A DNA stretch of 64,000 nucleotides. It comes from Klenkia soli (GTDB lineage: Bacteria > Actinomycetota > Actinomycetes > Mycobacteriales > Geodermatophilaceae). The position numbers and the translations under genes are program-made. The first letter of the stretch is position 1. Each line of letters starts with the position of its first letter. Shown piece by piece: positions 21,627 through 53,580 of this stretch. Below the pieces are notes generated by a model, which saw nothing but the letters and a program-made list of their open reading frames with translations, was not told where the DNA came from and searched no databases. The stretch spans positions 248,001-312,000 of the forward strand of contig NZ_FNIR01000006.1 of NCBI RefSeq assembly GCF_900103975.1, written 5' to 3'.

Positions 21627-22793
21627 TCAGACCGCGTTGGCCTGCGCCACCCCGCCCAGCCAGGCCAGGCTCGGCTTCGGCGTCCGGACGAACGTCTGCC
21701 GGTCCACCTCCACCAGGCCGAACGTGGGCCCGTAGCCGGCGAACCACTCGAAGTTGTCCAGCAGCGACCAGTGCACGTACCCGCGGACGTCGGCCCCGTC
21801 GGCGATCGCCGCGGACAGCGACCGCAGCGCCTCGGTGGTGAACTCGACCCGCTGGGCGTCGTCCCCGGTGGCGATGCCGTTCTCGGTGACCACGATCGGG
21901 GTGCCCGGCAGCACCTCCGACACCCGGCGCACCGAGGCGCCGAGCGCGCCCGGGCGGTACTCCATGTGGGCCTTCGTCATCAGGGCGGGGTCGCCGGCGA
22001 CCGGGCCGTCGGGGCCGATCCGGGCGCAGCTGTAGATCTGCATGCCGACGAAGTCGCCGTCCGCCGCGACCTCGAGGAACTGGTCCTCCATCGCGGCGCG
22101 GTGGGCGACCAGCTCGTCGTCCCCGCCGTCCTCGACGATCCACTCCTGCCCGACCAGCGACAGCCCGTGGGTGACACCGGCACCGCGGAGCACCTCGGTG
22201 CTGGCCCGGTGCGCGCTGAGGAAGGCGTCGGTCAGCCGCTGGTCGGGGCGGGGGAGACCCTCGATGGCCTCACCGCGGGCGGCCATCGCGCCCAGCACCG
22301 GCAGGACGGCGGCCAGGTTCGGCTCGTTGATGGTCACCGTGTACGGCACGTCGGCCAGCACAGGCAGCACCGTCTCGGTGAACCGGGCGAACCGGTCGGC
22401 CGCCTTCGGTGAGGTCCACGCGCCGTCGGCGTGGAACCACCGCGGGGTGGTGAAGTGCATCAGCGTGACCAGCGGCGAGAGCCCGCGCTCCAGGCAGCCG
22501 TCGACCATCCGCCGGTAGTGGTCCAGCCCGGCGCGGGAGACCTCGCCCTCCTCGGGCTCGATCCGGCTCCACTCCAGGCTGAACCGGTAGGCGCCCAGCC
22601 CCGAGCCGGCGACCAGGTCCAGGTCCTCGCGCCAGCGGTGGTAGCTGTCGCAGGCGTCGCCGCTGACCTCGGCGAACGGGGAGTGCTCGGCGTGCTCCCA
22701 CTCCCAGTAGTGGTTCTGCGTGTTGCCGCCCTCGACCTGGTGGGCGGCGGTGGCCGTGCCCCAGAGGAAGGACTCGGGGAAGGTGGCGGTCAT
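21627..22793 (-). CDS. GH1 family beta-glycosidase
   Basis: Retaining beta-glucosidase-type enzyme of 388 residues, somewhat shorter than the usual 440-480, with no signal peptide. Acid/base Glu157 lies in TINEPN and nucleophile Glu304 in VTENG; the N-terminal FLWGTATAAHQVEGG and the C-terminal WSLLDNFEWFAGY blocks bind the substrate. The ATG at 22793 overlaps the hydroxylase stop (ATGA). As the last gene of the quercetinase-like operon it probably removes glucose from an imported aromatic glycoside so the aglycone can enter the pathway. Confidence 0.92.
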   Translation of the reverse strand: MTATFPESFLWGTATAAHQVEGGNTQNHYWEWEHAEHSPFAEVSGDACDSYHRWREDLDLVAGSGLGAYRFSLEWSRIEPEEGEVSRAGLDHYRRMVDGCLERGLSPLVTLMHFTTPRWFHADGAWTSPKAADRFARFTETVLPVLADVPYTVTINEPNLAAVLPVLGAMAARGEAIEGLPRPDQRLTDAFLSAHRASTEVLRGAGVTHGLSLVGQEWIVEDGGDDELVAHRAAMEDQFLEVAADGDFVGMQIYSCARIGPDGPVAGDPALMTKAHMEYRPGALGASVRRVSEVLPGTPIVVTENGIATGDDAQRVEFTTEALRSLSAAIADGADVRGYVHWSLLDNFEWFAGYGPTFGLVEVDRQTFVRTPKPSLAWLGGVAQANAV

Positions 22794-24391
22794 GCGGTCT
22801 CCAGGGTGTGCACGCCGGTGACGGCGTCGAGCAGGTCGGTGGGGGAGTCGATCGCGTCGCCGCGCCAGGCGACGTGCTGGTCGGGCCGCACGAGCACGAG
22901 GTCGGCGCCCCACAGCTCACGTGGCACGACCACCTCGACCACGGTCAGCGGGATGCTCCGTCGCACCGCCTCGGCCGCCAGCGGAGCGGGGTCACCGGCG
23001 AGCACGAGCAGGGTGAACCCGTCGCCCAGCTCGTCGTAGACCGAGCACCCCGGCCGCAGCCAGGCGTGCGGCAGCCGGGCACCGGGGTGCGCGGAGGGCC
23101 GGTACTCCACGACGTCGTGCGCCGGAGGTGTCGACCCGTCGGGGACGACGACCGGGGAGTCGGCGTAGTCGTAGCCCAGCACGAGGCCCAGGCTGTGGAA
23201 CTCCGGGTCCTTGGCCTGCAGCGCGGCGGCCAGCTCGGCCCGGACGGCGTCGCCCTCGGGTCCGGGGGCCTCGGCGTCCCGTCCGGCGAAGGCGGCCGCG
23301 GTGAACGACTCCTGCCCGCCGGCCGCGGCGATGGTCCGCTCGGCCACCGGCCGGCGCTCGGGCTCGTAGCTGTCCAGCAGCGACACCGGGGCCCAGCCCT
23401 GCAGCACGGCGGCCAGCTTCCAGCCGATGTTGACCGCGTCGCCGACGCAGGTGTTGAACCCGTGCCCGCCCCACGGGGGGTTCAGGTGCGCCGCGTCCCC
23501 GACCAGGAACACCCGCTCGCCGCGGTAGCGGTCCACCAGCAGCATGCGGGCCGACCACGGGTCGGTGACCAGCACCTCGACGTCCAGGTGCGGGTCGCCG
23601 GCGAAGGCGCGCACCAGCTCGACCGGGTCGACGGCCTCGGTGCGCACGTCGACGCCCTGCACGATCGCCCACCAGGTGCCGTCGAGGTCCAGCCGACCCA
23701 TCAGGCCGCCGCGCTCGCCGCCGACCACCCACCAGTGCACACCCAGCCCGCACGGCGGCCGCTCGTCGAGCATCCGCGAGCGGAAGGCCAGCGACAGGTT
23801 CGGGGCGGTGCCCGAGGAGCCGGCGTAGCTCGCGCCGATGGCCGCCCGGGAGACCCCGCCGCCGCCGTCGGCACCGAGCAGGTACTCGGCCCGCACCTCG
23901 GTGGTCGTGCCCTCGGGCCCGGTGACCACCGCGCGGACGCCGTCCGGCCCGTCCTCGACCTCGCTCACCCGGTGCCCCAGCAGCAGCGTCACCGACGGCA
24001 GGTCGGCCACCGCGTCGCGCAGCAGCTGCTCGACGACGGGCTGCGGCACCTGCTGGCCGGCCTCGGCGGCGATGTCGCGGGGCTGCGTCCACAGACCGAA
24101 CGCGTTCGGGAAGCGGGTCAGCTCACGGCCGAACACCGAGGTGCAGAAGACGACGTCCTGGGCGTGCTCGACCGGCAGCGGTGCCCGCCGGCGCAGTTCG
24201 TCGGCCAGCCCCCAGCGCCGCAGGTGCTCCATGGTGCGCACGCTGGTGGTCTTCGCCCGGGCGCGCAGCGGGTCGAGGGTCTCCCGCGGCTCCACCACGA
24301 GCACCTCGATGCCGCGCCGGCCCAGCTCGATGGCCGCGGCCAGCCCGCTGGGCCCGCCCCCGGCGACGAGCACCGGGACGCGTTGGTTCAT
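22790..24391 (-). CDS. FAD-dependent aromatic hydroxylase (PheA/TfdB family)
   Basis: Class-A flavin monooxygenase of 533 residues that uses NAD(P)H and O2 to hydroxylate a phenolic ring. It has the FAD motif VLVAGGGPSGLAAAIELGRRG (about 7-27), the second FAD motif VFLVGDAAHLNPPWGGHGFNTCVGDAVNIGWKLAAVL near the middle, and a thioredoxin-like C-terminal domain. Phenol, chlorophenol, resorcinol and naringenin (FdeE) hydroxylases share this build. It lies in a run of 4-base overlaps between the DUF3500 and GH1 genes. The ring it attacks is unknown; an A-ring hydroxylation of a flavonoid would fit the context. Confidence 0.9.
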   Translation of the reverse strand: MNQRVPVLVAGGGPSGLAAAIELGRRGIEVLVVEPRETLDPLRARAKTTSVRTMEHLRRWGLADELRRRAPLPVEHAQDVVFCTSVFGRELTRFPNAFGLWTQPRDIAAEAGQQVPQPVVEQLLRDAVADLPSVTLLLGHRVSEVEDGPDGVRAVVTGPEGTTTEVRAEYLLGADGGGGVSRAAIGASYAGSSGTAPNLSLAFRSRMLDERPPCGLGVHWWVVGGERGGLMGRLDLDGTWWAIVQGVDVRTEAVDPVELVRAFAGDPHLDVEVLVTDPWSARMLLVDRYRGERVFLVGDAAHLNPPWGGHGFNTCVGDAVNIGWKLAAVLQGWAPVSLLDSYEPERRPVAERTIAAAGGQESFTAAAFAGRDAEAPGPEGDAVRAELAAALQAKDPEFHSLGLVLGYDYADSPVVVPDGSTPPAHDVVEYRPSAHPGARLPHAWLRPGCSVYDELGDGFTLLVLAGDPAPLAAEAVRRSIPLTVVEVVVPRELWGADLVLVRPDQHVAWRGDAIDSPTDLLDAVTGVHTLETA

Positions 24392-25620
24392 GGCTGCTCC
24401 TCGTGCATCTGCTGGTACCGGCGGACCCAGGCCCGGCCGTAGTCGTTGCCGTGCGGGGTGCGCAGCACGGTGTGCACGTGGAAGGGCTGCGGGGTGCGGT
24501 AGTCGAGGAAGACGCCGCAGTGGTGGTCGATCTCGGCGACGACGACCGGTGACTGCACGCGGCAGTAGTAGACGTCGGTGCCGCCGATCCAGCTGAAGCT
24601 GGTCCCGTCCAGGTGCGCCCGGATCTCCCGCATCCGGGCGGCCCGCGGGCCCGCCGGGAGCAGCACGTGGAAGTCCTCGAGCAGCGCCAGGACGGCGTCC
24701 TGCGCGGCCGGCGGCATGTCCGCGACGGCGACGCCCTCGACCGGGATGACCCGGTTGTCCTGGAACGCCCCGGCCAGGTGCCGTTCGTCGCCGGCGTGCA
24801 CCCGGCCGGGCGGCATCGCCGGGTCGACCATCTGCTCGTAGACGACGGCGGCCGTGCGCTGGTCGGCCGGCAGTGCGGCCATGACCGCCCGGCCGAGGTC
24901 GATGCGGTGCGCGAAGAGCGTGGGGCCGGCGTTCGGTCCCTCGTCGATCCGGTCCGGCTCGGCGCCCAGGAACACCGGCGAGAGCACCATCCGGCCCTCG
25001 ACCACCAGGCAGTTCAGCGCGCAGTGGTGGCCGTAGAGCTGCCAGCCCCACGGCGCCCGCAGGTCGGGGGTGCCGTAGACCGCGATGTTGTAGCTGAACT
25101 CGCCGAGCACGGTGGGCAGGTCGACGACCTCGCCGAGGAAGCCGTTGACCAGCATCATCCCGTGCGCCAGGTCGAAGCCCTCGGGGCTCAGCGAGGCCCG
25201 CACCAGGTCCAGCGCGGCCTGCCGCACGGCGTCGGGCTGCAGCTCCAGGCGCAGGCCGGTGTCGAACTGCAGGAACTCCGGGTTGGCCCAGGTCTGCCAC
25301 TCGGGGGCGTCCACGTCGTACCGGAGGCGGGGGTCGTCGGCGACCGCGATCAGCGCTTCCGCCGCGGCCACCATCGCCGCGACGGGGGCCTCCTCGCCGG
25401 GCTCGGCCGGGGTGAGGTCGTGCAGGCCCTCGCGGAGCACGCCGTCCTCGGTGACGCCGCGGAACGGCGCGAGGTACAGCGGCGTCCAGCCCTCGACCAG
25501 CCCGCCGGTGAAGGTGCCGGGCGTGCGGGCGTGCTCGCGGTAGGCGTAGGGGTCCATGCCGCGGACCGACGCCAGCCGCGGGTGGTCGTGCGGGAACAGG
25601 TACTGCCGGAAGTCGGTCAC
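24388..25620 (-). CDS. DUF3500 family protein
   Basis: Protein of 410 residues of unknown function, recognised by the DUF3500 blocks GEFSYNIAVYGTP, PWGWQLYGHHCALNCLV and the C-terminal VVAEIDHHCGVFLDY...PFHVHTVLRTPHGNDYG. Several conserved His residues (YGHHCALN, DHHCG, HVHTV) suggest metal or substrate binding. No signal peptide or membrane segment. GTG start overlapping the FAH stop, and its own stop overlaps the hydroxylase start, so it is translated as part of an aromatic catabolic operon. I do not know its reaction; a hydrolytic or ring-fission step is possible. Confidence 0.82.
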   Translation of the reverse strand: MTDFRQYLFPHDHPRLASVRGMDPYAYREHARTPGTFTGGLVEGWTPLYLAPFRGVTEDGVLREGLHDLTPAEPGEEAPVAAMVAAAEALIAVADDPRLRYDVDAPEWQTWANPEFLQFDTGLRLELQPDAVRQAALDLVRASLSPEGFDLAHGMMLVNGFLGEVVDLPTVLGEFSYNIAVYGTPDLRAPWGWQLYGHHCALNCLVVEGRMVLSPVFLGAEPDRIDEGPNAGPTLFAHRIDLGRAVMAALPADQRTAAVVYEQMVDPAMPPGRVHAGDERHLAGAFQDNRVIPVEGVAVADMPPAAQDAVLALLEDFHVLLPAGPRAARMREIRAHLDGTSFSWIGGTDVYYCRVQSPVVVAEIDHHCGVFLDYRTPQPFHVHTVLRTPHGNDYGRAWVRRYQQMHEEQP

Positions 25621-26480
25621 CGGTCGGCCACCACGGGCGTGGTCAGCGTGCCGAGCCCGTCGATCTCCACCTCGACGACGTCGCCGGGGTGCAGCAGCCA
25701 CTGCGGGTCGCGGGCGTAGCCGACCCCGGACGGCGTGCCGGTGGCCAGCAGGTCGCCCGGCCGCAGCGTGAAGGTGCGGCTGATCAGGGCCAGGGTGTCG
25801 CCGACGGTGTAGACCATCTCGTCGGTGGAGCCGTCCTGCACCGTCTCGCCGTTGACCCGGGTGCGCACCCGCAGGCCGTCGCGCAGGTCGCCGACCTCGG
25901 CGGCCGGCACGATCGGACCCAGCGGGCCGGACCGGTCGGCGTTCTTGCCGAGGATCCACTGGCTGGTCAGCTTCTGCGCCCGGCGGGCGGTGATGTCGTT
26001 GAACGTCGAGTACCCGACGACGGCGGCCAGCGCCTCCTCGGGCGTGGCGTCGGCCAGCTCGGCGCCGACGTAGGCCATCACCTCGCCCTCCCAGTCCAGC
26101 CCGTCCTCGTCGACCGGCACCGGGACGCCGACCCCGCCGACCGACAGCGACTGCGTCCAGCGGGCGAACAGCGTGGGGTGCTCGGGCAGGGCCTGGCCGC
26201 TGAAGGAGCCCTCGGCGACGTGCTTGAGGTAGTTCAGCCCGATGCAGACCACCCGGGCGCCGGGCAGCACCGGCGGCACCAGCTCGACGTCGTCGACCGC
26301 GAGGTCGGGGGCACCCATCGCGGCGGCCGGGTCGGCGGCCAGCAGCGCGGCGGCGTCGGACCAGAACTCCTCCAGGGTGGCCAGCGCGGTCACCCGGGCG
26401 CCGTCCTCGGAGAGCGCCCCGACCTGCACGTCCCCGACGGCGCCGTCCCCGGCTCGGTGGCGGAAGCCGACGATCCTCAC
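25617..26480 (-). CDS. Fumarylacetoacetate hydrolase (FAH) family protein
   Basis: Metal-dependent hydrolase of 287 residues that cleaves a C-C bond in a diketo acid. Family motifs: VCIGLNYLKHVAEGS, the metal-binding DWEGEVMAYVG, GYSTFNDITARRAQK, and the C-terminal LLATGTPSGVG. Such enzymes act after ring cleavage (fumarylpyruvate, acylpyruvate) in aromatic pathways. It starts at GTG 26480, overlapping the stop of the alpha/beta hydrolase gene. Placement between a hydrolase and the DUF3500/hydroxylase pair suggests a late step in aglycone breakdown. Confidence 0.9.
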   Translation of the reverse strand: MRIVGFRHRAGDGAVGDVQVGALSEDGARVTALATLEEFWSDAAALLAADPAAAMGAPDLAVDDVELVPPVLPGARVVCIGLNYLKHVAEGSFSGQALPEHPTLFARWTQSLSVGGVGVPVPVDEDGLDWEGEVMAYVGAELADATPEEALAAVVGYSTFNDITARRAQKLTSQWILGKNADRSGPLGPIVPAAEVGDLRDGLRVRTRVNGETVQDGSTDEMVYTVGDTLALISRTFTLRPGDLLATGTPSGVGYARDPQWLLHPGDVVEVEIDGLGTLTTPVVADR

Positions 26481-27343
26481 TGCTGGTCTCCGATCAGGTG
26501 CTGGGTCAGGAAGGTGGTGGTGCGGGCCAGCGCGGTCGCGGCGGCGTCGGGGGAGCCGAGCCACATGTGGTCGGCGCCGGTCAGGGTCTCGAACTCGACG
26601 TCGGGGAGCAGCTGCGCGAGCCGCACGCTCTGGTCGTGCGGGACCAGCCGGTCGGCGTCCCCGTGCAGCAGCAGGAACGGCGGCGCGGTCGGGGTGACGT
26701 GGCTGACCGGGCTGGCCTGCACGGCGCGGACCGGGTCGGCCGCGGGCGGGGCTCCCAGCAGCTGGGCCTCGCGGGAGGCCGGGTCACCCGGGTCGGCCAC
26801 CGTCGCCAGCTCGGTCGGCGGGTACCAGGCGACGACGGCGCACACCGTGCTCGGCACCCCGGTGACCCCGACCTCGCCGTCCCACTCCCCGCCGGTCAGC
26901 CCGAGCAGCGCGGCCAGGTGCCCGCCGGCGGACTCGCCCCAGGCCGCGATGCGGTCGGGGTCGATCCCCAGCTCGTCGGCCCGGGACCGCAGCCACCGGA
27001 CGGCGGCCTTCGCGTCGTGCAGCTGGGCCGGCCAGACCGCCTCGCCGGAGAGCCGGTAGTCGACGCTGGCCACCGCGATGCCGGCGGCGGCCAGCTGCTC
27101 GAACGGCTCGCTGCCGGTGAACGACGGGCCGGCCGAGTGCCGGCTGCCCAGCCGCCAGCCGCCGCCGTGCAGGAACACCACGACCGGCGCGTGTCCGGGG
27201 TGCGCGGGCAGGTGGAGGTCGAGCTCGAGCGGTCGGGCACCGGGCAGGGCTGCGTAGGGGACGCCGGCCAGGACCCGGACGCCGTCCGCGGTGGTGCGGG
27301 CGGGCGGCAGGGGAGCCGTGTGCGCCGGGGGCGGCGGGGTCAC
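26477..27343 (-). CDS. Alpha/beta hydrolase (carboxylesterase type)
   Basis: Esterase-like enzyme of 288 residues. The oxyanion motif is VVFLHGGGWRLG, the nucleophile elbow GESAGGHLAALL (Ser), followed by a late Asp in LLHGDADRLVP and His in GADHMW. No signal peptide. GTG at 27343 overlaps the cupin stop. Directly behind a quercetinase-like cupin, it could cleave the ester (depside) formed when a flavonol ring is opened, but related enzymes are promiscuous and this is inference. Confidence 0.85.
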   Translation of the reverse strand: MTPPPPAHTAPLPPARTTADGVRVLAGVPYAALPGARPLELDLHLPAHPGHAPVVVFLHGGGWRLGSRHSAGPSFTGSEPFEQLAAAGIAVASVDYRLSGEAVWPAQLHDAKAAVRWLRSRADELGIDPDRIAAWGESAGGHLAALLGLTGGEWDGEVGVTGVPSTVCAVVAWYPPTELATVADPGDPASREAQLLGAPPAADPVRAVQASPVSHVTPTAPPFLLLHGDADRLVPHDQSVRLAQLLPDVEFETLTGADHMWLGSPDAAATALARTTTFLTQHLIGDQQ

Positions 27344-27894
27344 TCCTGGACGTCCCACCGGTGCTCGGGGAGGAACTGCATGCGGTGCTGCTGCGCGGCG
27401 GACTGCATGCGCGGGAAGTCCGGGATGAACGGCGGCTGCTCGCCGGTGTGGTCGGTGGGGGTGCCCATGTGCTGGAAGAACCGCTCGAAGCCGCCGGAGA
27501 GGGTGCCCATCATGCGGCTGGGCTCGAGGACCTGGTAGGCGTGCGCGAAGCCGGCGGGCACGTAGCCGAAGTCGCCGGGGGCGAGCAGGCGGGTCTGCTG
27601 AGCGCCCTCGGCGTCCTCGAAGAACAGCCGGACCTGGCCCTCGAGGACGAAGAACGTCTCGTGGGTGGCGTCGTGCTTGTGGGTGGGGATGACGTCGCCG
27701 GGTGGGCACTCGGCGGTGATGATCCCGAACTGGTTCTCGGTCTCCGCGCCCGAGAGCAGCACGGTGAACAGGTCGCCGAAGAGCTTGGCGTGCTCGCCCT
27801 CGCCGCGGCGCAGCACGTAGGGCTCGGGCGTACCGGGCAGCTGGCCCTGCCACTGCGGACCGTTGGCGGGGTCGATCAGGTACTCGAAGCTCAT
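27340..27894 (-). CDS. Monocupin dioxygenase, quercetin 2,3-dioxygenase-like
   Basis: Single-cupin protein of 184 residues. Cupin motif 1 is exact (G66 to G86 following GX5HXHX4EX6G) and gives His72, His74 and Glu79; motif 2, GDFGYVPAGFAH, gives His118, together the 3-His-1-Glu metal site of quercetinases. Size and the flanking HAKLFGDL, ETENQF and FERFFQHMGTP segments recall the actinobacterial monocupin quercetinase QueD. It would open a flavonol or related ring with O2. First gene of a six-gene overlapping operon, ATG at 27894, with an IclR-type site 75 bases upstream. Other cupin functions cannot be excluded. Confidence 0.8.
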   Translation of the reverse strand: MSFEYLIDPANGPQWQGQLPGTPEPYVLRRGEGEHAKLFGDLFTVLLSGAETENQFGIITAECPPGDVIPTHKHDATHETFFVLEGQVRLFFEDAEGAQQTRLLAPGDFGYVPAGFAHAYQVLEPSRMMGTLSGGFERFFQHMGTPTDHTGEQPPFIPDFPRMQSAAQQHRMQFLPEHRWDVQE

Positions 27895-27954: not shown

Positions 27955-27968
27955 GCACGGCAGCGGCC

Positions 27969-27983
27969 TGCCATTGAGCGGCA
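27969..27983. promoter_or_regulatory. Putative IclR operator, site 1 (cupin operon)
   Basis: TGCCATTGAGCGGCA, an imperfect palindrome with TGCC/GGCA ends, 75-89 bases upstream of the cupin ATG. Near-identical 15-mers occur at 35956, 36805 and 53623, each at a promoter of a glycoside or esterase operon. Confidence 0.65.
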
Positions 27984-28976: not shown

Positions 28977-28981
28977 TGCGG

Positions 28982-31310: not shown

Positions 31311-31384
31311 GTGCCCACCTCCCGCCCGTCGGCTTCAGCCGCTCACGACGCGGCGCCGGTCGATCATGGCCCAGGTCGGCGTGC

Positions 31385-32809: not shown

Positions 32810-32828
32810 GACCCCTCCTCCTTTGTCT

Positions 32829-32844
32829 TCGAACACCTGATCGA
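32829..32844. promoter_or_regulatory. LexA (SOS) box upstream of the DUF222/HNH gene
   Basis: TCGAACACCTGATCGA matches the actinobacterial SOS box TCGAAC-N4-GTTCGA with one mismatch in the right arm. It is 20 bases upstream of the preferred start codon. LexA repression of 13E12-type genes is known in mycobacteria, so DNA-damage induction is likely. Confidence 0.72.
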
Positions 32845-33036
32845 AGAGTAGCGGAACCTCGACAGGTGGGCAAGGCGAAAGCCCAGGTCAAACGGGTGAC
32901 GAGGCCGTCGCCCGGTAGCTGCGCGAGCCGGGGCAAGGGGTGGCCTCGAATCCCTGACGGTCGTCGGTCATCGCAACGGGTGACCACCGTCGGAGATCAG
33001 CGGCCACCCCATGGCCTTCCTCGATACGGTCCGACC

Positions 33037-33507
33037 GTGACGTCAGCAGAGCGGCCGCAACCGCTGGTGGTCCGCCGCGGCGAGGGCGAGCTGCTCGACG
33101 TCGGCGGCATCCGGCACCTGTTCGCGCTCACCGGCGACGACACCGGTGGCCGGTTCGGGCTGGAGGAGTTCGCGCTCCCGCCGTCCACCCTGGGCGCCCG
33201 GCCGCACGTGCACGGCTCGCACGACGAGTACTTCGTCGTCCTGGCCGGGCAGCTGACGCTGAGCACCGCGGGGGACGACGTCGTCCTCGCTCCGGGCGAC
33301 ACGGCGGCCGCACTGCGCGGCACCGCGCACGGCTACCGCAACGACAGCAGCACCGAGCCGGCCCGGGCGCTGTGCCTGTACACCCCGGCCGGCTACGAGC
33401 AGTACTTCCGCGACGTGCACGCCGCCGTCGCCGCGGGCGAGGACCCCACCGACGACCTGCTGGCCGCCCTCCGCTCCCGCTACGACACCACGTCGCTGCC
33501 GCGGTAG
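33037..33507 (+). CDS. Cupin-domain protein
   Basis: Single-cupin protein of 156 residues. The metal motif is PHVHGSHDEYFVVLAGQL (HxHX4EX6G) and the second motif ends TAHGYRN; a short helical tail follows. Function could be a sugar or aromatic isomerase, dioxygenase or regulator-like sensor. GTG at 33037 lies six bases after a TACGGT -10-like hexamer (33025-33030), so the message is probably leaderless. It converges on the GH43 gene and overlaps it by 28 bases. Confidence 0.75.
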   Translation: MTSAERPQPLVVRRGEGELLDVGGIRHLFALTGDDTGGRFGLEEFALPPSTLGARPHVHGSHDEYFVVLAGQLTLSTAGDDVVLAPGDTAAALRGTAHGYRNDSSTEPARALCLYTPAGYEQYFRDVHAAVAAGEDPTDDLLAALRSRYDTTSLPR

Positions 33508-35869: not shown

Positions 35870-35955
35870 GGCGGCTCCTCGACGAGTCGACCCGTGACGT
35901 GCGCCACGGGTGTTCGGTCGACGGTCGGGCACGCGGCGCTGGTCGGCTACGGCCC

Positions 35956-35970
35956 TGCCATTGGGCGGGA
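35956..35970. promoter_or_regulatory. Putative IclR operator, site 2 (esterase/GH43 operon)
   Basis: TGCCATTGGGCGGGA, 13 of 15 positions identical to site 1, 87-101 bases upstream of the esterase start, in the 122-base gap between that gene and the iclR gene. Confidence 0.6.
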
Positions 35971-36810: not shown

Positions 36811-36819
36811 TGACCGGCA
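36805..36819. promoter_or_regulatory. Putative IclR operator, site 3 (iclR / importer promoter)
   Basis: TGCCATTGACCGGCA, 14 of 15 positions identical to site 1. The iclR start codon (complement of 36808-36810) is inside it, and it lies 103 bases upstream of the binding-protein ATG. Overlapping palindromes TGACGTCA and GTCACGTGAC follow at 36827-36840 and may belong to the divergent promoters. Confidence 0.65.
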
Positions 36820-38466: not shown

Positions 38467-38474
38467 CGTCACCC

Positions 38475-38509: not shown

Positions 38510-38537
38510 ACCCACCCCCTCCCGACTGGAGCCCCCG

Positions 38538-41506: not shown

Positions 41507-42507
41507 CCGCCGCCGCACCCGTCCGCGAGGACGCGGCCACCACGACGCCCGCGCTCGAGGTCCGCGACCTCGTCGTCCGCTACGGCTCGGGCCGGAAGGC
41601 CCGCGCGGCCGCCCCGGCGATCGACCGGGTCAGCTTCACCGTCGCCCCCGGCGAGACCCTCGGCCTGGTGGGGGAGTCGGGGTCGGGCAAGTCCACGATC
41701 GGCAAGGCCATCCTCGGCCTGCAGCCGCCCAGCGAGGGCCAGGTGCTGGTGCAGGGCCGCGACATCACGAGCCTGCCGCTGCGCAAGCGCCGGGGGCTGG
41801 CCGCCGACCTGCGGGTGGTCTTCCAGGACCCGTACTCCTCGCTCAACCCGGCCCGCACGATCGGCCAGACCCTGGTCGAGCCGCTGCCCCGCGGCACCGC
41901 CGACGCGACGACCCGGGCCCGGCAGGCGCTGGAGTCCGTCGGCCTGCCCGGCGACGCCGTCGACCGGTACCCCACCCAGTTCTCCGGCGGGCAGCGCCAG
42001 CGCATCGCCATCGCCCGCTCGCTGGTCGTGCGGCCCAAGGTCATCGTGCTCGACGAGCCGGTCTCCGCCCTGGACCTCTCCACCCAGGCCCAGGTGCTCA
42101 ACCTGCTGGCCGACCTGCGGGACGAGCACGGCCTGGCGTTCCTGTTCGTGGCGCACGACCTGGGCGTGGTCCGGTTCCTCGCGCAGCGCACCGTCGTCCT
42201 GTACCGGGGCCAGGTCATGGAGACCGGACCGGTGGACGACGTCACGCTGCACCCCCGGCACCCCTACACCGCGGCGCTGACCTCGGCCGCGCCCGTGCCC
42301 AGGCCCGCCGAGCAGGCGGCCCGCCGGGCCGCCCGGGAGGCGCTAGGCATCGGGACGGCGGGGGCCGCCGCGCCCTCGCCGACCGGCTGCCCGTTCGCCA
42401 CCCGCTGCCCGCTGGCCACCGAGGTCTGCACGACCGAACGCCCCGCGCTGCGCCAGGTCGGCGCCAGCCTGACCGCGTGCCACCACGCCGAGGAGCTCAC
42501 CGCGTGA
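41503..42507 (+). CDS. ABC transporter ATPase (DppF/OppF type)
   Basis: Second ATPase of the importer, 334 residues. Walker [11 protein letters not shown]-loop [17 protein letters not shown], signature [15 protein letters not shown], Walker [13 protein letters not shown], and the C-terminal [14 protein letters not shown] cluster. It forms a heterodimer with the ATPase half of the fusion protein. ATG at 41503 with GGAGGAG; its stop overlaps the GH3 start, tying transport to hydrolysis. Confidence 0.94.
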
Positions 42508-47464: not shown

Positions 47465-48369
47465 CCGAGGTCACCGCCGACTGGGCCGGCCCCGCCCGGT
47501 TCCTGCCCCCGCACGAGCCCGCCGTCCGGCCCGACGGGAGCCGGCACTGGTCGGGGCTGACCTACGCGGTGGCCATGGGCTACCGGCCGCTGCAGCTGGA
47601 CCTGTGGGCACCGGCCGGCTCCCCGGCCCCGCTGGTGGTGTGGGTGCACGGCGGCGGGTTCATGTTCGGCGATCGTCGGATCCTGCCCGAGACGTTCCGC
47701 CCGGACCAGGTGCCCGACGCCTTCCTCGCCGCCGGGATCGCCGTCGCGAGCATCGACTACCGGCACGCGCTGGAGGCGCCGTTCCCCGCGCAGCTGCTGG
47801 ACGCGAAGGCCGCCGTCCGCTGGCTGCGCCGGTTCGGCCCCCACCTGGGCCTGTCCACCGAGCGGATCGGCATCGTGGGGGAGTCCGCCGGCGCGCACAT
47901 CGCCGCCTCGGTCGGGCTCACCGCCCACCGCGCCGACCTGGAGCCGGCGCACGGCGTGCAGGGGGAGTCCTCCGCCGTCCAGGTCGTCGTCGACTGGTAC
48001 GGCCCGGCCGACCTGGCCACCATGCCCCGCCGGCAGCCGCCGCCGCACATCGCGGCCAAGCTCCCCCCGGAGCTGCTGGTCGCCCCCGAGGACCACCTGA
48101 CCCGTGGTCTCACCGGCGACGCGCTGGCCGACGCCAGCCCGGTCACCCACGTGACCCCGCAGGCCCCGCCCTTCCTGCTGGTGCACGGCACGGCGGACTG
48201 GCTGGTGCCCTACGAGCAGAGCGAGGTCCTGCACGCCGCGCTGACCGCCGCCGGGGTGCCCTCGACGCTGGTGCCGGTCGAGGGCGCGCAGCACATCTTC
48301 GACGGCCACGACGACGTCGACGGCCTCGTGCAGCTGACCGTGGACTTCGTGGCGGAGCAGCTGTCGTGA
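47461..48369 (+). CDS. Alpha/beta hydrolase (carboxylesterase/BD-FAE type)
   Basis: Esterase-like enzyme of 302 residues. HGGGFMFG oxyanion motif, nucleophile GESAGAHIAAS, Asp in LLVHGTADWLVP and His in EGAQHIFDGH. It resembles the hydrolase at 26477 in the middle and C-terminal half (shared DAKAAVRWLR and SPVTHVTP...APPFLLVHG patterns), suggesting paralogues. ATG and stop both overlap the flanking rhamnosidase genes, so it probably removes acyl groups from rhamnosylated substrates before or between rhamnosidase steps. Confidence 0.87.
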   Translation: MTEVTADWAGPARFLPPHEPAVRPDGSRHWSGLTYAVAMGYRPLQLDLWAPAGSPAPLVVWVHGGGFMFGDRRILPETFRPDQVPDAFLAAGIAVASIDYRHALEAPFPAQLLDAKAAVRWLRRFGPHLGLSTERIGIVGESAGAHIAASVGLTAHRADLEPAHGVQGESSAVQVVVDWYGPADLATMPRRQPPPHIAAKLPPELLVAPEDHLTRGLTGDALADASPVTHVTPQAPPFLLVHGTADWLVPYEQSEVLHAALTAAGVPSTLVPVEGAQHIFDGHDDVDGLVQLTVDFVAEQLS

Positions 48370-50975
48370 CCATCGTCGGACCCGTCACCGTGGAGCACCA
48401 CCGCGAGCCGCTCGGCATCGGCGAGACCACGCCCCGGCTGTCCTGGGTGACCAGCACGGACGAGCGCGACTGGGTGCAGCGCGGGTACGAGCTGCAGGTC
48501 GACGGCTGGACGTCGGGCCGGGTCGGGTCGCCCGACTCCGTGCTGGTGCCGTGGCCGGTCGAGCCGCTGACCAGCCGGGAGCGACGCACCGTGCGGGTCC
48601 GCGTGTGGGGGCCGGACGACGACCCGTCCGAGTGGTCGCCCGAGGTCGTCCTGGAGGCCGGGCTGCTCGACCCCGCCGACTGGTCGGCGACCCTGGTGCA
48701 GCCGGTCCTGGGCGACGCCGACGAGCCGGTCGCCCTGCTCCGCCGTGAGTTCACCCTCGCCTCGCCGGTCGTCTCGGCGAGGCTGTACGCCACCGCGCAG
48801 GGCGTGTTCGAGGCCGAGCTCAACGGCGCGGCCGTCGGCGACGAGGTGCTCGCGCCCGGGTGGACCAGCTACACCCACCGGCTGCGCTACCTGACCTGGG
48901 ACGTCACCGACCAGGTGGCGGAGGGACCGAACACGCTCGGGATCACCCTGGCCGACGGCTGGTTCCGCGGCGCGCTGGGCTTCACCGGCAAGCGGGCGTT
49001 CTACGGCGACCGGACCGGCGCGTTCGCCCAGCTCGAGGTCGAGCACCCCGACGGCAGCCGCACCGTCGTCACCACCGACGGCAGCTGGCGGTCCACCACC
49101 GCCGGCCCGGTCATCCGGGCCGGGCTCTACTCCGGCGAGACGCACGACTGCCGGCGGGAGCTCCCCGGCTGGTCGAGCTCCGGCTTCGACGACTCCTCCT
49201 GGACCCCGGTCGAGGTCGGTGCGCTCGACGCGAGCACGCTGGTCGCCCCGACCGGCCCGCCCGTCCGGCGCACCGAGGTCGCGCCCGCGGTCGAGGTCAG
49301 CCGGTCGCCGTCCGGAGCCGTGCTGGTCGACTTCGGCCAGAACCTGGTCGGCCGGATCCGGTTCGCCCTGCCCGACGCCCCGGCCGGCACCGAGATCACC
49401 GTGCGGCACGCCGAGGTGCTCGAGCACGGCGAGCTCGGCACCCGCCCGCTCCGCGGTGCGAAGGCCACCGACGTCGTGGTCCTCGACGGCACGGGCCCGC
49501 GGTCGTGGGAGCCCCGGTTCACCGTGCACGGCTTCCGGTACGCCGAGGTGACAGGCTGGCCCGGCGAGCTGACCACCGCGCACCTCGAGGCGGTCGTGCT
49601 GCACACCGACCTCCGGCGCACGGGCTGGTTCGCCTGCTCCGACTCCCGCGTCACCCGGCTGCACGACAACGTGCTGTGGGGCATGCGCGGCAACTTCCTC
49701 GACGTGCCCACCGATTGCCCGCAGCGCGACGAGCGGCTGGGCTGGACCGGTGACCTGCAGGTCTTCGCCCCGACCGCCTCGTTCCTCTACGACACCACCG
49801 GCATGCTCAGCTCCTGGCTGGCCGACCTCGCCGTCGAGCAGGCCGAGCTCGACGGCGTCGTCCCCATGTACGTGCCGTTCATCCCGTTGCTGCCCTTCCC
49901 GCAGCAGCCCGAGGTCGGCTGGGGCGACGCGGCCGTCGTCGTCCCGTGGGTGCTGCACGAGCGCACCGGTGACCGGGGTCTGCTGCGGCGGCAGTGGCCG
50001 TCGATGGTGGCCTGGGTCGACGCGTTCGCCGCGCGGGCCGGGGCCGACGTCGACTTCCCCGAGGGCGGGTTCTCCTTCGGCGACTGGCTGGACGCCTCTG
50101 CACCGCCGGACAACCCGGCCGCCGCGCGCACCCCGTGGCAGGCCGTGGCCACGGCCTACCTGGCCCGGTCAGCCCGCACGCTGGCCCAGGTCGCCGCGCT
50201 GCTGGGCGAGGACGGCACCCGGTTCGCCGAGCTGGGGGAGCGGGCCGCCGCCAGGTTCCGCGACGAGTACGTCAGCCCCACCGGCCGGGTCGCCTTCCCG
50301 TCCCAGACCGCCTACGCGCTGGCGCTCGAGTTCGACCTGCTGGCCCCGGAGCAGCGGCCGCACACCGGGCGGCTGCTGGCCCGGCAGGTGCTGGACGACG
50401 GGTTCCACATCGCCAGCGGGTTCCTCGGCACGCCGCTGGTCTGCGACGCGCTGACCCACGCCGGCGAGCTGGCCAGCGCCTACGAGCTGCTCCTGCAGGA
50501 GGAGTGCCCGAGCTGGCTGTACCCGGTGTCGATGGGGGCCACGACGATCTGGGAGCGCTGGGACTCCATGCTGCCCGACGGCTCGATCAACCCCGGCGAC
50601 ATGACGTCGTTCAACCACTACGCCCTGGGCGCGGTGGCCGACTGGCTGCACCGCACGGTCGCCGGCCTCGCCCCGGCGTCACCGGGTTACCGCGAGCTGC
50701 TGGTGGCCCCGCGGCCGGGCCCGGGCATCAGCTCGGCGTCGGTGGAGCACGACACGCCCTACGGCCGCGCCGCGGTGTCGTGGGTGCTGACCGGCGGTAC
50801 GGCGTTCACCCTGGAGTTGACCGTGCCGGCCGGCACCACCGCCACTGTGCAGCTGCCCGACGGCAGCGACCCGGCGGTCGTCGGGTCGGGGGCGCACGCG
50901 TTCGCCTGCACGATCGACGAGCCGCAGCCGGTGGAGAAGCCGGCGCTGTTCTTCGACCCCGACGCCCACGCCTGA
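48366..50975 (+). CDS. GH78 alpha-L-rhamnosidase, second copy
   Basis: Second GH78 enzyme, 869 residues, same domain order: beta domains with LYATAQGVFEAELNGAAVGDEVLAPGWTSY, the (alpha/alpha)6 barrel, then a C-terminal beta domain. Catalytic candidates are Glu456 in DCPQRDERLGWTGD and Glu730 in TTIWERWDS. Sequence divergence from the first copy is considerable despite the tandem position, so the two likely differ in linkage preference (for example alpha-1,2 versus alpha-1,6). GTG start overlaps the esterase stop; it ends the seven-gene operon. Confidence 0.93.
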   Translation: MTIVGPVTVEHHREPLGIGETTPRLSWVTSTDERDWVQRGYELQVDGWTSGRVGSPDSVLVPWPVEPLTSRERRTVRVRVWGPDDDPSEWSPEVVLEAGLLDPADWSATLVQPVLGDADEPVALLRREFTLASPVVSARLYATAQGVFEAELNGAAVGDEVLAPGWTSYTHRLRYLTWDVTDQVAEGPNTLGITLADGWFRGALGFTGKRAFYGDRTGAFAQLEVEHPDGSRTVVTTDGSWRSTTAGPVIRAGLYSGETHDCRRELPGWSSSGFDDSSWTPVEVGALDASTLVAPTGPPVRRTEVAPAVEVSRSPSGAVLVDFGQNLVGRIRFALPDAPAGTEITVRHAEVLEHGELGTRPLRGAKATDVVVLDGTGPRSWEPRFTVHGFRYAEVTGWPGELTTAHLEAVVLHTDLRRTGWFACSDSRVTRLHDNVLWGMRGNFLDVPTDCPQRDERLGWTGDLQVFAPTASFLYDTTGMLSSWLADLAVEQAELDGVVPMYVPFIPLLPFPQQPEVGWGDAAVVVPWVLHERTGDRGLLRRQWPSMVAWVDAFAARAGADVDFPEGGFSFGDWLDASAPPDNPAAARTPWQAVATAYLARSARTLAQVAALLGEDGTRFAELGERAAARFRDEYVSPTGRVAFPSQTAYALALEFDLLAPEQRPHTGRLLARQVLDDGFHIASGFLGTPLVCDALTHAGELASAYELLLQEECPSWLYPVSMGATTIWERWDSMLPDGSINPGDMTSFNHYALGAVADWLHRTVAGLAPASPGYRELLVAPRPGPGISSASVEHDTPYGRAAVSWVLTGGTAFTLELTVPAGTTATVQLPDGSDPAVVGSGAHAFACTIDEPQPVEKPALFFDPDAHA

Positions 50976-51198: not shown

Positions 51199-51201
51199 TC
51201 C

Positions 51202-53580
51202 TCAGCCGAGGGGCAGGCGCAGCCGGATGTCGCCGAGGCCGCGGGCGAGCATCAGCTCACCGCGGTCCTCGGCCACCCAGCCGGCCCCGTCCCAGCGGCG
51301 CAGCACCCGGGGGTCGCAGGTGACGGTGACCTGCGCGGTGGCCCCGGCGGGCACGACCGCAGCGCGCCAGCCGACCAGCCGGACCGGGCGCGCGGGGTCG
51401 GCCGGCTGCAGGTAGACCTGCACGACCTCGCGGGAGTCGCGGGTCGAGGTGTTCGCGATCGTCGCCGTCACCACCGGGGTCGGCCCCGCGGTGTCGACCG
51501 ACGCCTCCCGGTAGTCCCAGCTGCCGTAGCCCAGCCCGGCGCCGAACCAGGCCGCCGGCGCCGGCGCGTGCCCGGCGGCGTGCCCGCGGTGCCCGACGAA
51601 CGCGCCCTCGGCGTAGGTGAGCACGCCGTCGGTGGGGGTGACCGACCAGGCGGGGGAGGCCCCGTCGGCGGCCGGCCAGGTGGTGACCAGGCGGCCGGCC
51701 GGTTCGAGCTCGCCCAGCAGCGCAGCCGCCACGGCGTGCCCGCCCTCCTGACCGGGCAGCCCGGCCACCAGGACGGCGTCCACCCGGTCGAGCCAGGGCA
51801 TCAGCACCGGGGTGGCTGCGTTCACCACGACGACGGTGCGCCGCGCCGTGGCGGCCACGGCCTCGACCAGGGCGTCCTGCGCACCGGGCAGCGCCAGGGT
51901 GGTCTTGTCGCGGGACTCGGTCTCCTGCTCGGCGGTCAGCCCGACCACCACCACCGCCACGTCCGCCCCGGCGGCGGCCGACGCCGCGGCCGCGATCGCG
52001 TCGGCGTCCGGCACCGGCGCGGGGCGGGCGACGAGCCCCACCATCGCGTGCTCGAGGTCGCCCAGGTCGACCTCGGCGGTCACCTCGACCGGCCCGTCCA
52101 CGGCGAGGTCGGCCACCCGGTGCGGCGGCGCGAGCAGCGACTCCCCGGGCACCCCGGTCACCGGGTCGACCTGCACGGTGGCCCGCTGGTCGCCGGCGGT
52201 CACCGTCCAGCTGCCGAGCCCGACGACGCCCAGCTGCAGCGGCCCGGTGTGGTCGACGCGGGCGGTCAGCCGCACCCGGGTGCCGGGGCCCGCCAGCTCA
52301 CCACCCCAGCCGACGACCCGCCGGCTGTCGGCCAGGTGCTCGTCGACCAGGGGCCGGCCGTCGGCGCCCACGACCTGCAGCCGCACCCCCGGCGTCCCGT
52401 CGACCGGGTCGACGACGAACCCGGGGCGGGCGGCCGGCGGGGTGCTGCCCAGCTGCACGCCGCCGGCCCAGGTGACGGCCGGGCCGAGGGCGGCGGTCAG
52501 CCCGTCCAGGACCGAGACCTGGTGCGGCGGCGAGACCTCGGCCGAGCCGCCGCCCATGAGCAGCGTCTCGGTCGCCGGCAGCCCGGCCAGGGCGACCCGG
52601 GTGCCGGCGGCCAGGGGGAGCGCGCCGTCGTTGCGGAGCACGGTCATGCCGGCGGCCGCCCACTCCCGCAGCTGCGCGGTGCGGGCCGGGTCGTCGGCGC
52701 CGGGCACCTCCGGCCACTCCCGCGGCGTCCCCAGGGCACCCACGCGCTCGGCCAGCAGGAGCACCCGGCGGACGGCGGCGTCGACGACGGCCGGTGACAC
52801 CTCGCCGGCCTCCACCGCGGCGACCAGCTGCTGGCCCCAGGGCCCGAACGGGCCGGGCAGCACCACGTCGAGACCGCCGGTGATCGCCGGGGCGGTGGAG
52901 TGGGTGGCGAAGAAGTCCGACACCACCAGGCCGGCGTAGCCCCACTCGCCCTTCACGACCTGGTTGAGCACCCGGTCGTGCTCGGTGGCCGGCACGCCGT
53001 CGACCCGGTTGTAGGCCGCCATGAGCAGCCACGCGTCGGCGTCGGCCACCGCGATCTCGAAGGGCAGCAGGTAGACCTCCCGCAGCGTGGCCTCGTCGAT
53101 GCGCACGTCGACGGTGTGCCGGTCGGTCTCGGCCTCGTTGCCGACCAGGTGCTTCAGGCAGGCCCCGACGCCCTGGTCCTGCAGGCCGCGGACGTAGGAG
53201 GCAGCGAGCCGACCGGTGAGCAGCGGGTCCTCGGAGAAGCACTCGAAGACCCGGCCGCCCAGCGGGCTGCGGTGCAGGTTGATGGTCGGTCCGAGGACGA
53301 CGTGCGTGCGGTTGCGCTGCGCGTCCTCGGCGAGGAACCGGCCGACGTCGGCGAGCAGCTGCTCGTCCCAGGTGCTGGCCAGCGCCGTGGCGTTGGGCAG
53401 CAGCGCGGCCGGCGCGCCTCCGCTCTGCGACTGGCCCTTCACCCCCGAGGGCCCGTCGGACATGGCGATCGGGGTGAGCCCGATCGCCTCGTCGCCGGTG
53501 AAGGAGAAGAACGAGGCCCCGGTCAGCAGCCGGACCTTGCCGGCGAGGTCCAGCTGGACGAGGGCGGCGTCGACGGTCAC
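51202..53580 (-). CDS. GH3 family beta-glycosidase, second copy
   Basis: Retaining glycosidase of 792 residues without signal peptide. Nucleophile Asp222 in GLVVSDFFATHS; substrate blocks IAMSDGPSGVKGQ, GPTINLHRSPLGGRVFECFSEDP, ACLKHLVGNEAETDRHT; a middle beta-rich insertion and a C-terminal fibronectin III-like domain (VVTATIANTSTRDSREVVQVYLQP). It parallels the GH3 at 42504 but is clearly diverged. GTG start at 53580, a single-gene unit with IclR-type site 4 just upstream, so it should be co-induced with the rhamnosidase operon. Confidence 0.92.
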   Translation of the reverse strand: MTVDAALVQLDLAGKVRLLTGASFFSFTGDEAIGLTPIAMSDGPSGVKGQSQSGGAPAALLPNATALASTWDEQLLADVGRFLAEDAQRNRTHVVLGPTINLHRSPLGGRVFECFSEDPLLTGRLAASYVRGLQDQGVGACLKHLVGNEAETDRHTVDVRIDEATLREVYLLPFEIAVADADAWLLMAAYNRVDGVPATEHDRVLNQVVKGEWGYAGLVVSDFFATHSTAPAITGGLDVVLPGPFGPWGQQLVAAVEAGEVSPAVVDAAVRRVLLLAERVGALGTPREWPEVPGADDPARTAQLREWAAAGMTVLRNDGALPLAAGTRVALAGLPATETLLMGGGSAEVSPPHQVSVLDGLTAALGPAVTWAGGVQLGSTPPAARPGFVVDPVDGTPGVRLQVVGADGRPLVDEHLADSRRVVGWGGELAGPGTRVRLTARVDHTGPLQLGVVGLGSWTVTAGDQRATVQVDPVTGVPGESLLAPPHRVADLAVDGPVEVTAEVDLGDLEHAMVGLVARPAPVPDADAIAAAASAAAGADVAVVVVGLTAEQETESRDKTTLALPGAQDALVEAVAATARRTVVVVNAATPVLMPWLDRVDAVLVAGLPGQEGGHAVAAALLGELEPAGRLVTTWPAADGASPAWSVTPTDGVLTYAEGAFVGHRGHAAGHAPAPAAWFGAGLGYGSWDYREASVDTAGPTPVVTATIANTSTRDSREVVQVYLQPADPARPVRLVGWRAAVVPAGATAQVTVTCDPRVLRRWDGAGWVAEDRGELMLARGLGDIRLRLPLG

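What the first reader, a model, noticed from the sequence alone, without database searches (positions are those of the whole stretch)
21627..53580. Candidate rhamnosyl-flavonoid (rutin/naringin-like) utilisation system
The putative regulon combines an importer, two GH78 alpha-L-rhamnosidases, two GH3 and one GH1 beta-glycosidases, esterases, a 3-His-1-Glu monocupin resembling quercetinase QueD, a TfdB/PheA-type hydroxylase (the family of naringenin hydroxylase FdeE), an FAH hydrolase and DUF3500. This is a plausible complete route: import a rhamnosyl-glucoside, strip sugars inside the cell, open and hydrolyse the aglycone. None of the glycosidases has a visible signal peptide, which supports import of the intact glycoside. 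The substrate is inferred from the enzyme set.
Basis: inference. Interest (0 to 1): 0.78.

Follow-up and report, generated by a model that had tools for sequence, protein, structure and literature searches.

The report
Flavonol rhamnoside breakdown gene cluster
A soil bacterium carries one co-regulated set of genes that seems to import sugar-decorated plant flavonols such as rutin, strip off the sugars, cut the flavonol open and digest both halves, and one half appears to go through a ring-opening protein so far known mainly as an unexplained family in bacteria.

Summary
The gene inventory is confirmed and forms one regulon. A 16-bp operator pattern, CTGCCATNNRGCGGNA, has three exact matches in the 4.76-Mb genome, each before a transcription unit of this set. 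With up to two mismatches it recurs 85-89 bp before the cupin match in 16 of 18 related loci. The cupin is a QueD-type monocupin quercetinase by full-length similarity (E 6.5e-43), with the four ligand residues kept. This points to flavonol rhamnosides (rutin/quercitrin type), not naringin: none of 27 proteins scanned belongs to the ring-cleavage families searched for. It lies with an FAH hydrolase in 76 of 80 related loci, and with an FAD hydroxylase in all 35 that carry a quercetinase-type cupin, mono- or bicupin. In fungi a DUF3500 protein is the proposed ring-opening enzyme for 1,2,3,5-tetrahydroxybenzene, a pathway described in 2026 as seemingly restricted to fungi. I propose this cluster is a bacterial counterpart, fed by flavonol A-rings: quercetinase, depside esterase, FAD hydroxylase, DUF3500, FAH. 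Synteny is strong. The hydroxylase, DUF3500 and FAH chemistry is inferred, and the only solved DUF3500 relative is titled a dehydratase.

The parts
27340..27894 (-). Monocupin quercetinase (QueD type), first gene of operon B
   Evidence: 5FLI E 6.5e-43, Bacillus quercetinase 2H0V E 2.4e-40; ligand residues H72, H74, E79, H118 kept
26477..27343 (-). BD-FAE esterase (EstB), proposed depside hydrolase
25617..26480 (-). FAH-family hydrolase, proposed acylpyruvase of the A-ring branch
   Evidence: PF01557 E 1.5e-63; near DUF3500 in 76 of 80 loci
24388..25620 (-). DUF3500 protein, proposed 1,2,3,5-tetrahydroxybenzene ring-opening enzyme
   Evidence: PF12006 E 1.3e-90; H198 H199 H281 E363 D365 H366 H367 H381 H383 invariant in 77 sequences; model pLDDT 85.4
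22790..24391 (-). FAD aromatic hydroxylase (FAD_binding_3 + Rng_hyd_C), proposed to make tetrahydroxybenzene
   Evidence: PF01494 E 1.9e-68, PF21274 E 6.1e-13; relative, 46-82% identical, in 35 of 35 loci with a quercetinase-type cupin
21627..22793 (-). GH1 beta-glycosidase, last gene of operon B
   Evidence: PF00232 E 4.3e-70
27968..27983 (+). Operator CTGCCATTGAGCGGCA before operon B
   Evidence: exact match, 1 of 3 in the genome; site at the same place in 16 of 18 related loci
33480..34925 (-). GH43 glycosidase
   Evidence: PF04616 E 6.9e-75
34922..35869 (-). Abhydrolase_3 esterase (Est34)
   Evidence: PF07859 E 2.3e-44
35955..35970 (+). Operator CTGCCATTGGGCGGGA before the Est34-GH43 unit
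   Evidence: exact match
35992..36810 (-). IclR-family regulator, divergent from the importer
   Evidence: PF01614 E 5.6e-26, PF09339 E 5.7e-14; IclR relative in 28 of 80 loci
36804..36819 (+). Operator copy GTGCCATTGACCGGCA (2 mismatches) at the IclR/SBP divergent promoter; overlaps the called IclR start, which may lie further in
36922..38466 (+). Family-5 solute-binding lipoprotein of the importer
   Evidence: PF00496 E 3.6e-55
38538..42507 (+). ABC permease, permease-ATPase fusion, ATPase
   Evidence: PF00528, PF00005, PF08352
42504..44852 (+). GH3 beta-glycosidase (GH3a)
   Evidence: PF00933 E 1.6e-35, PF01915 E 9e-56
44849..47464 (+). GH78 alpha-L-rhamnosidase (GH78a)
   Evidence: PF17389 E 6.5e-97 and four further GH78 domains
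47461..48369 (+). BD-FAE esterase (EstA)
   Evidence: PF20434 E 5.1e-49
48366..50975 (+). GH78 alpha-L-rhamnosidase (GH78b)
   Evidence: PF17389 E 2.4e-116; 6GSZ alpha-L-rhamnosidase E 5.4e-227
51202..53580 (-). GH3 beta-glycosidase (GH3b)
   Evidence: PF00933 E 6.2e-39
53623..53638 (-). Operator CTGCCATCTGGCGGCA before GH3b
   Evidence: exact match

Best explanation
This is an IclR-controlled regulon for using flavonol rhamnosides (rutin, quercitrin and similar) as food. The SBP5/ABC importer takes up the intact glycoside (inferred). Cytoplasmic GH78, GH1, GH3 and perhaps GH43 enzymes strip rhamnose, glucose and other sugars (family-based). The QueD-type monocupin opens the C-ring of the flavonol, releasing CO and a depside (family-based, strong). 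The BD-FAE esterase next to it hydrolyses the depside (for quercetin, to protocatechuate and 2,4,6-trihydroxybenzoate) (inferred from conserved pairing). Protocatechuate goes to the pcaGHB pathway elsewhere in the genome. The A-ring half is hydroxylated, with loss of the carboxyl group if it is still present, by the FAD hydroxylase to 1,2,3,5-tetrahydroxybenzene; DUF3500 opens that ring; FAH cleaves the product. Cleavage between two adjacent OH-bearing carbons would give 2,4-dioxoadipate (malonylpyruvate), which an acylpyruvase of the FAH type would split into pyruvate and malonate. The last three steps are inferred from synteny, from the fungal DUF3500 proposal and from chemistry; none is shown here. 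That IclR is the protein that binds the operator is also inferred.
For: Quercetinase: 5FLI E 6.5e-43 with ligand residues kept. One regulon: 3 exact operators in 4.76 Mb, all here; in 18 related QueD loci 65 sites (up to 2 mismatches) vs 15 for the reversed pattern, 16 of 18 QueD promoters vs 0 of 18, and 4 sites in 181 kb of mapped genes vs 61 in the remaining 179 kb. One cluster: SBP, IclR, QueD, EstB, FAH, DUF3500 and FADhyd lie within one fetched locus in 13 of those 18; a GH78b ortholog with a second GH78 beside it is found in 14 of 16 genomes searched, and in 13 of the 14 its coordinates adjoin the locus. DUF3500 with FAH in 76 of 80 loci, 67 of those 76 within 1.5 kb. Quercetinase-type cupin in 35 of 80 (19 mono, 16 bi), every one with a 46-82% identical FAD hydroxylase; of the other 45 loci 20 have one at E <= 1e-10, 10 of them only 28-32% identical. 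The one bicupin compared with the PDB, from Arthrobacter (L152), matches the Bacillus quercetinase 2H0V at E 1e-60 and QueD only at 2.3e-15, so the DUF3500 set was apparently joined to flavonol opening more than once. BD-FAE esterase in 34 of 35 vs 5 of 45. Fungal DUF3500 proposed as tetrahydroxybenzene dioxygenase (PMC12388069, passages; PMC13094099, passages). pcaG, pcaH and pcaB above cut-off in this genome. CoA-transferase plus carboxyltransferase genes in 9 of 80 loci fit malonate as a product.
Against: No activity is shown for any enzyme. The only solved DUF3500 relative (9X86, E 1.3e-25 with the profile) is titled a dehydratase, and it was the only match at E <= 0.001 in the fold search, so no known dioxygenase fold was found. 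45 of 80 loci have DUF3500 without a quercetinase-type cupin and 25 have neither that nor this hydroxylase, so the module serves other substrates too; flanks that end at contig ends make these upper bounds. The other two sampled genomes with QueD (G246, G334) have DUF3500 genes only of another type, without HxxDERH. A Thioclava plasmid has a gene annotated hpaD about 2 kb from DUF3500. The 80 loci are the best 80 of 199 and many are close relatives, so counts are not independent; no tree was built.
Confidence: 0.66

Rival explanations
1. Same flavonol rhamnoside regulon, but DUF3500 is not a dioxygenase: it is a dehydratase, hydrolase or tautomerase acting on a product opened by the hydroxylase, by air oxidation or by an enzyme elsewhere.
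For: Its only solved relative, 9X86, is titled 'dehydratase ApmL in Amipurimycin biosynthesis' and matches the GHH, E363, D365 and HxH positions. No match to a known dioxygenase fold at E <= 0.001. Intradiol dioxygenase family genes exist elsewhere in the genome.
Against: DUF3500s of this clade carry further conserved residues (HxxDERH; the two His of DHH) that 9X86 does not match. Fungal work proposes a dioxygenase role. No other ring-cleavage family among the 27 proteins scanned.
Confidence: 0.25
2. Flavanone (naringin/hesperidin) utilisation by an FdeE-like A-ring hydroxylation route.
For: The FAD hydroxylase is in the same broad family (PF01494) as FdeE (Pfam family of FdeE recalled; FdeE/FdeC roles from PMC11069340 passages).
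Against: No FdeC-like dioxygenase family in the cluster. The first gene of operon B is a flavonol-type quercetinase. All 35 loci with a quercetinase-type cupin have the hydroxylase.
Confidence: 0.06
3. A system for non-flavonoid rhamnosides (pectin fragments, saponins), in which FAH is the L-2,4-diketo-3-deoxyrhamnonate hydrolase of rhamnose oxidation and the aromatic genes serve an ester-linked phenolic acid.
For: The best NCBIfam match of FAH is NF053535, that hydrolase, and 8GSR matches at E 1.5e-35. GH78, GH43 and esterases also suit plant polysaccharides.
Against: FAH scores 141 against a cut-off of 500, and four other PDB chains match it better than or about as well as 8GSR. FAH accompanies DUF3500 in 76 of 80 loci, while only 7 of 80 have GH78 within the flank. 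The quercetinase is under the same operator.
Confidence: 0.08

Closest known systems
QueD monocupin quercetinase of Streptomyces sp. FLA (5FLI)
   Same: Size, full-length similarity, four ligand residues
   Different: Here it opens an operon with esterase, FAH, DUF3500, hydroxylase and GH1 in an IclR-linked regulon; metal and activity untested. The FLA gene neighbourhood was not examined
fde naringenin pathway of Herbaspirillum seropedicae and the Variovorax isoflavone cluster (PMC11069340, passages)
   Same: Bacterial flavonoid catabolism that includes an FAD monooxygenase
   Different: Those start at the A-ring with FdeE and FdeC; here the C-ring is opened by a cupin, and no FdeC-type gene family was found in the cluster
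Fungal 1,2,3,5-tetrahydroxybenzene central pathway with DUF3500 protein AN10530 (PMC12388069 and PMC13094099, passages)
   Same: DUF3500 together with a hydroxylase as proposed supplier of tetrahydroxybenzene
   Different: Fungal route starts from gallate by PhyA; here proposed to be fed by flavonol A-rings, with FAH as steady partner, in bacteria. The sequence of AN10530 was not compared
ApmL/Amc20 of amipurimycin biosynthesis (9X86)
   Same: Only solved relative of DUF3500 found
   Different: Antibiotic biosynthesis, titled dehydratase; HxxDERH and the two His of DHH not matched
GH78 alpha-L-rhamnosidase 6GSZ
   Same: Match over residues 5-846 of 869, E 5.4e-227
   Different: Linkage preference untested

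Membership tests
Monocupin quercetinase (QueD) | Full-length similarity to QueD | tested here: met
   5FLI E 6.5e-43, residues 21-181 of 184
Monocupin quercetinase (QueD) | 3-His-1-Glu metal site | tested here: met
   H72, H74, E79, H118 align with H69, H71, E76, H115 of 5FLI (ligand roles recalled)
Monocupin quercetinase (QueD) | Dioxygenolytic cleavage of flavonols | not testable with these tools
   needs enzyme assay
GH78 alpha-L-rhamnosidase | Bac_rhamnosid6H catalytic domain with N, concanavalin-like and C domains | tested here: met
   five GH78 Pfam domains in each of the two proteins
fde-type A-ring pathway | FdeC-type ring-cleavage dioxygenase beside the hydroxylase | tested here: not met
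   no PF00903, PF02900 or PF00775 at E<=0.001 in 27 proteins; rest of the genome not searched for FdeC
Tetrahydroxybenzene pathway (DUF3500 type) | DUF3500 protein | tested here: met
   PF12006 E 1.3e-90
Tetrahydroxybenzene pathway (DUF3500 type) | Orthology to fungal AN10530 | not testable with these tools
   no fungal sequence was at hand; source paper not held
Tetrahydroxybenzene pathway (DUF3500 type) | Upstream hydroxylase making tetrahydroxybenzene | tested here: inconclusive
   FAD hydroxylase relative in 55 of 80 loci, 10 of them weak; product unknown
L-2,4-diketo-3-deoxyrhamnonate hydrolase | NF053535 cut-off | tested here: not met
   141.2 bits against 500

The most novel reading that the evidence does not exclude
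Bacteria have the 1,2,3,5-tetrahydroxybenzene central pathway thought to be fungal. Its ring is opened by DUF3500, a metalloenzyme with a fold unlike the known ring-cleavage dioxygenases. FAH splits the product into pyruvate and malonate. Actinobacteria joined this module at least twice, to monocupin and to bicupin quercetinases, giving a complete genetically encoded route from rutin to central metabolism.
Probability: 0.48. Interest if true: 0.76.

Novelty: new variant of a known kind. Interest (0 to 1): 0.62.

Why it matters
In the passages I saw, quercetinases are described as enzymes, and no bacterial genes were named for what follows them. The cluster proposes genes for depside hydrolysis, A-ring hydroxylation, ring opening and the final split, and offers a function for one branch of a widespread domain of unknown function. 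If right, it extends a pathway called so far fungal-only in 2026 to bacteria, and supplies ready operons for testing plant-flavonol turnover in soil.

Tried and rejected
Naringin/FdeE route: rejected for lack of an FdeC-type gene family in the cluster and because the first gene of operon B is a flavonol-type cupin. Rhamnose-oxidation role for FAH: disfavoured on the NCBIfam cut-off and on synteny. Cupin at 33067-33507: not placed in the regulon; no site with up to three mismatches lies in 32651-33066. QueD as the steady partner of DUF3500: rejected; the steady partner is FAH. Own-genome DUF3500 copies on contig C8: they belong to a diverged type (29% identity for the one compared); that one has a lipoprotein-like N-terminus and lies beside a HupE-like gene; not part of this. 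Fold search for a known dioxygenase fold: only 9X86 at E <= 0.001. Paper searches for DUF3500, quercetinase-rhamnosidase clusters, quercetinase with phloroglucinol carboxylic acid, Amc20, tetrahydroxybenzene, phloroglucinol hydroxylase or malonylpyruvate, amipurimycin, bacterial quercetin/rutin degradation and phloroglucinol catabolism in Corynebacterium glutamicum: in the listings, and in the passages I opened from seven papers, I saw no bacterial description of this pathway. The library lacks most subscription journals, so prior work may exist. No tree was built; relatedness of loci is not corrected for. Metal-site geometry of the DUF3500 model could not be measured: no model file was among the files open to scripts. 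Of the 16 bicupins only one (L152) was compared with the PDB; the others are called quercetinase-type by similarity to L152 or L130. Rows dropped: L108, L112, L124 and L151 were left out of the invariant-residue count because their match translations contained a stop; alignment A2 used 34 of the 77 sequences then available, window included; L114 (Amycolatopsis) was left out of the operator count.
Full report
What is there. The window is 74.8% G+C and lies in a 4.76-Mb genome. By gene calling and Pfam the finding holds two main operons and smaller units. Operon A (+, 36922-50975) is SBP5, permease, permease-ATPase fusion, ATPase, GH3, GH78, BD-FAE esterase, GH78. Divergent from it are IclR (35992-36810) and then an Abhydrolase_3 esterase and a GH43. 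Operon B (-, 27894 to 21627) is cupin, BD-FAE esterase, FAH, DUF3500, FAD hydroxylase, GH1, neighbours overlapping by 4 bases. A second GH3 (51202-53580) stands alone. Between the two halves lies a block (27999-32650) of APH kinase, FAD/NAD protein, GNAT and DUF222-HNH genes; apart from two 34%-identical DUF222 matches, tblastn at E <= 1e-15 found none of them in 80 related loci.

One regulon. Reading the intergenic stretches showed a shared imperfect palindrome. CTGCCATNNRGCGGNA has three exact matches in the whole genome, all here: before the cupin operon, before the esterase-GH43 unit and before the lone GH3. A two-mismatch copy lies at the IclR/SBP promoter. The pattern was drawn from these sites, so the genome count alone is partly circular; with one mismatch allowed the genome has 8 matches against 9 for the reversed pattern. 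The independent test is in relatives. In 18 Geodermatophilaceae loci with the cupin (the 19th QueD locus, Amycolatopsis L114, was left out) there are 65 matches with up to two mismatches against 15 for the reversed pattern; 16 of 18 cupin promoters against 0 of 18; spacing 85-89 bp from site start to the start of the tblastn match in all 16; 4 matches inside 181 kb of mapped genes against 61 in the other 179 kb. Further sites lie about 125-182 bp before the hydroxylase and around IclR in many of these loci.

The cupin. phmmer against the PDB gives QueD (5FLI, E 6.5e-43) and Bacillus quercetin 2,3-dioxygenase (2H0V, E 2.4e-40), far above chains named oxalate decarboxylase (2.8e-9 at best). H72, H74, E79 and H118 align with the FLA ligands (ligand roles recalled). 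QueD at 45% identity or more, this genome included, is in 3 of 396 sampled genomes of the phylum, but within about 10 kb of DUF3500 in 19 of 80 loci.

Related loci. A scan of named genomes with a DUF3500 alignment returned the best 80 of 199 relatives, so the sample leans towards the query's clade. tblastn at E <= 1e-10 finds FAH in 76, a relative of the FAD hydroxylase in 55, monocupin QueD in 19, a bicupin in 16, and CoA-transferase plus carboxyltransferase together in 9. All 35 loci with a quercetinase-type cupin carry the hydroxylase at 46-82% identity; of the other 45, 20 do, half of them at only 28-32%. At the stricter setting the hydroxylase is in 46 of 80. A BD-FAE esterase is in 34 of 35 against 5 of 45. 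The Fisher p-values (5e-16 and 1e-8) overstate the case because relatives are counted. By genus there are three layouts: monocupin in Modestobacter, Blastococcus, Geodermatophilus, Klenkia and two unnamed Geodermatophilaceae (and one Amycolatopsis); bicupin in Arthrobacter, Pseudarthrobacter and a Micrococcaceae MAG; another bicupin in Brevibacterium. The one bicupin compared, from Arthrobacter (L152), matches 2H0V at E 1e-60; the Brevibacterium bicupins were not compared with the PDB, only with Pfam and by clustering with L152. Some loci stop at contig ends, so presence counts are lower bounds.

Whole cluster in relatives. SBP, IclR, QueD, EstB, FAH, DUF3500 and FADhyd lie within one fetched locus in 13 of the 18 Geodermatophilaceae QueD loci. 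Searching 16 of these genomes for GH78b finds a 72-80% identical ortholog in 14, each with a second GH78 (44-47%) close by. In 13 of the 14 its coordinates lie within 7 kb of the importer end of the locus (same contig inferred from coordinates, names not shown). Two (L103, L111) have none at E <= 1e-40.

DUF3500. The family has several types. Positions H198, H199, E363, D365, H381 and H383 recur in most members that align there. The type that travels with FAH adds H275/D278/E279/R280/H281 and H366/H367, with one exception each in the more distant L004 (H275) and L008 (H366). An AlphaFold model (pLDDT 85.4, pTM 0.89) has one match at E <= 0.001 among solved structures, 9X86, titled a dehydratase of amipurimycin biosynthesis; two paper searches for it gave nothing I could use (listings only). 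A review passage (PMC12388069) says an Aspergillus nidulans DUF3500 protein is the proposed dioxygenase turning 1,2,3,5-tetrahydroxybenzene into 5-hydroxydienelactone. A 2026 paper (PMC13094099, passages) names IPR021889 (printed there as DUF3550; [quoted passage not shown] The primary paper (Martins 2024) was not held.

Chemistry. Quercetin opened by a quercetinase gives CO and a depside of protocatechuate and 2,4,6-trihydroxybenzoate (established knowledge). Hydroxylation of the A-ring part would give 1,2,3,5-tetrahydroxybenzene. Cleavage between two adjacent OH-bearing carbons gives 2,4-dioxoadipate, an acylpyruvate; FAH-type hydrolysis gives pyruvate and malonate. A CoA-transferase and an ACC-like carboxyltransferase in 9 of 80 loci fit malonate use. 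A dienelactone hydrolase in one further locus with DUF3500, FAH and an FAD monooxygenase (L058) fits the lactone version. The protocatechuate half is covered by pcaG, pcaH and pcaB in this genome; pcaH is also over the cut-off in 8 of 8 relatives tested, though it is common in such bacteria.

Results against. The module occurs without a quercetinase-type cupin in 45 of 80 loci, so it is not specific to flavonols. The two other sampled genomes with QueD lack DUF3500 of this type, and two sampled genomes with this type and FAH nearby, G278 and G316, lack QueD. A Thioclava plasmid carries DUF3500-FAH beside genes annotated hpaD, hpaH and HpcH/HpaI, and a Paraburkholderia plasmid carries an annotated dioxygenase and maleylacetate reductase 6-7 kb away, so other ring-cleavage enzymes can be near. 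The dehydratase title of 9X86 is the strongest warning.

Verdict. The inventory and regulon are firm; flavonol glycoside is the best substrate call (about 0.8); the DUF3500 ring-opening role is likely but unproven (about 0.5). The kind of system, flavonoid catabolism with a quercetinase, is known; the combination and the bacterial tetrahydroxybenzene branch look new within the library searched.

Noticed in passing
L054 (own genome C13:30000-46000): A second importer (SBP, permease, permease-ATPase, ATPase; 36-52% identical) next to a GH78 50% identical to GH78b: a paralogous rhamnoside system.
   Followed up: no
   Followed up: partly
L093, L100, L101, L102, L107, L137, L145: Fused ACC-like carboxyltransferase (and in several a CoA-transferase family III gene) near FAH/DUF3500; may be a malonyl-CoA handling pair.
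   Followed up: partly
L127, L130, L120, L122, L129, L131: Brevibacterium bicupins, distinct from the Arthrobacter ones, in the same DUF3500-FAH neighbourhood; not compared with solved quercetinases.
   Followed up: partly
L160 (Thioclava plasmid) and L161 (Paraburkholderia plasmid): DUF3500-FAH pairs on proteobacterial plasmids, with FAD monooxygenase, dienelactone hydrolase, hpaD/hpaH or Rieske genes nearby.
   Followed up: partly
L051 8518-11089 (own genome C8): Lipoprotein-like DUF3500 next to a HupE/UreJ_2 protein: a different DUF3500 type of unknown role.
   Followed up: no
27999-32650: Block of APH kinase, FAD/NAD protein, GNAT and DUF222-HNH genes splitting the regulon; apart from two 34% DUF222 matches not found in 80 relatives' loci at E <= 1e-15: perhaps an insertion.
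   Followed up: partly
control genome Corynebacterium glutamicum: Rings for DUF3500 over the cut-off, so a genetically tractable host with a DUF3500 gene exists; its type was not examined.
   Followed up: no
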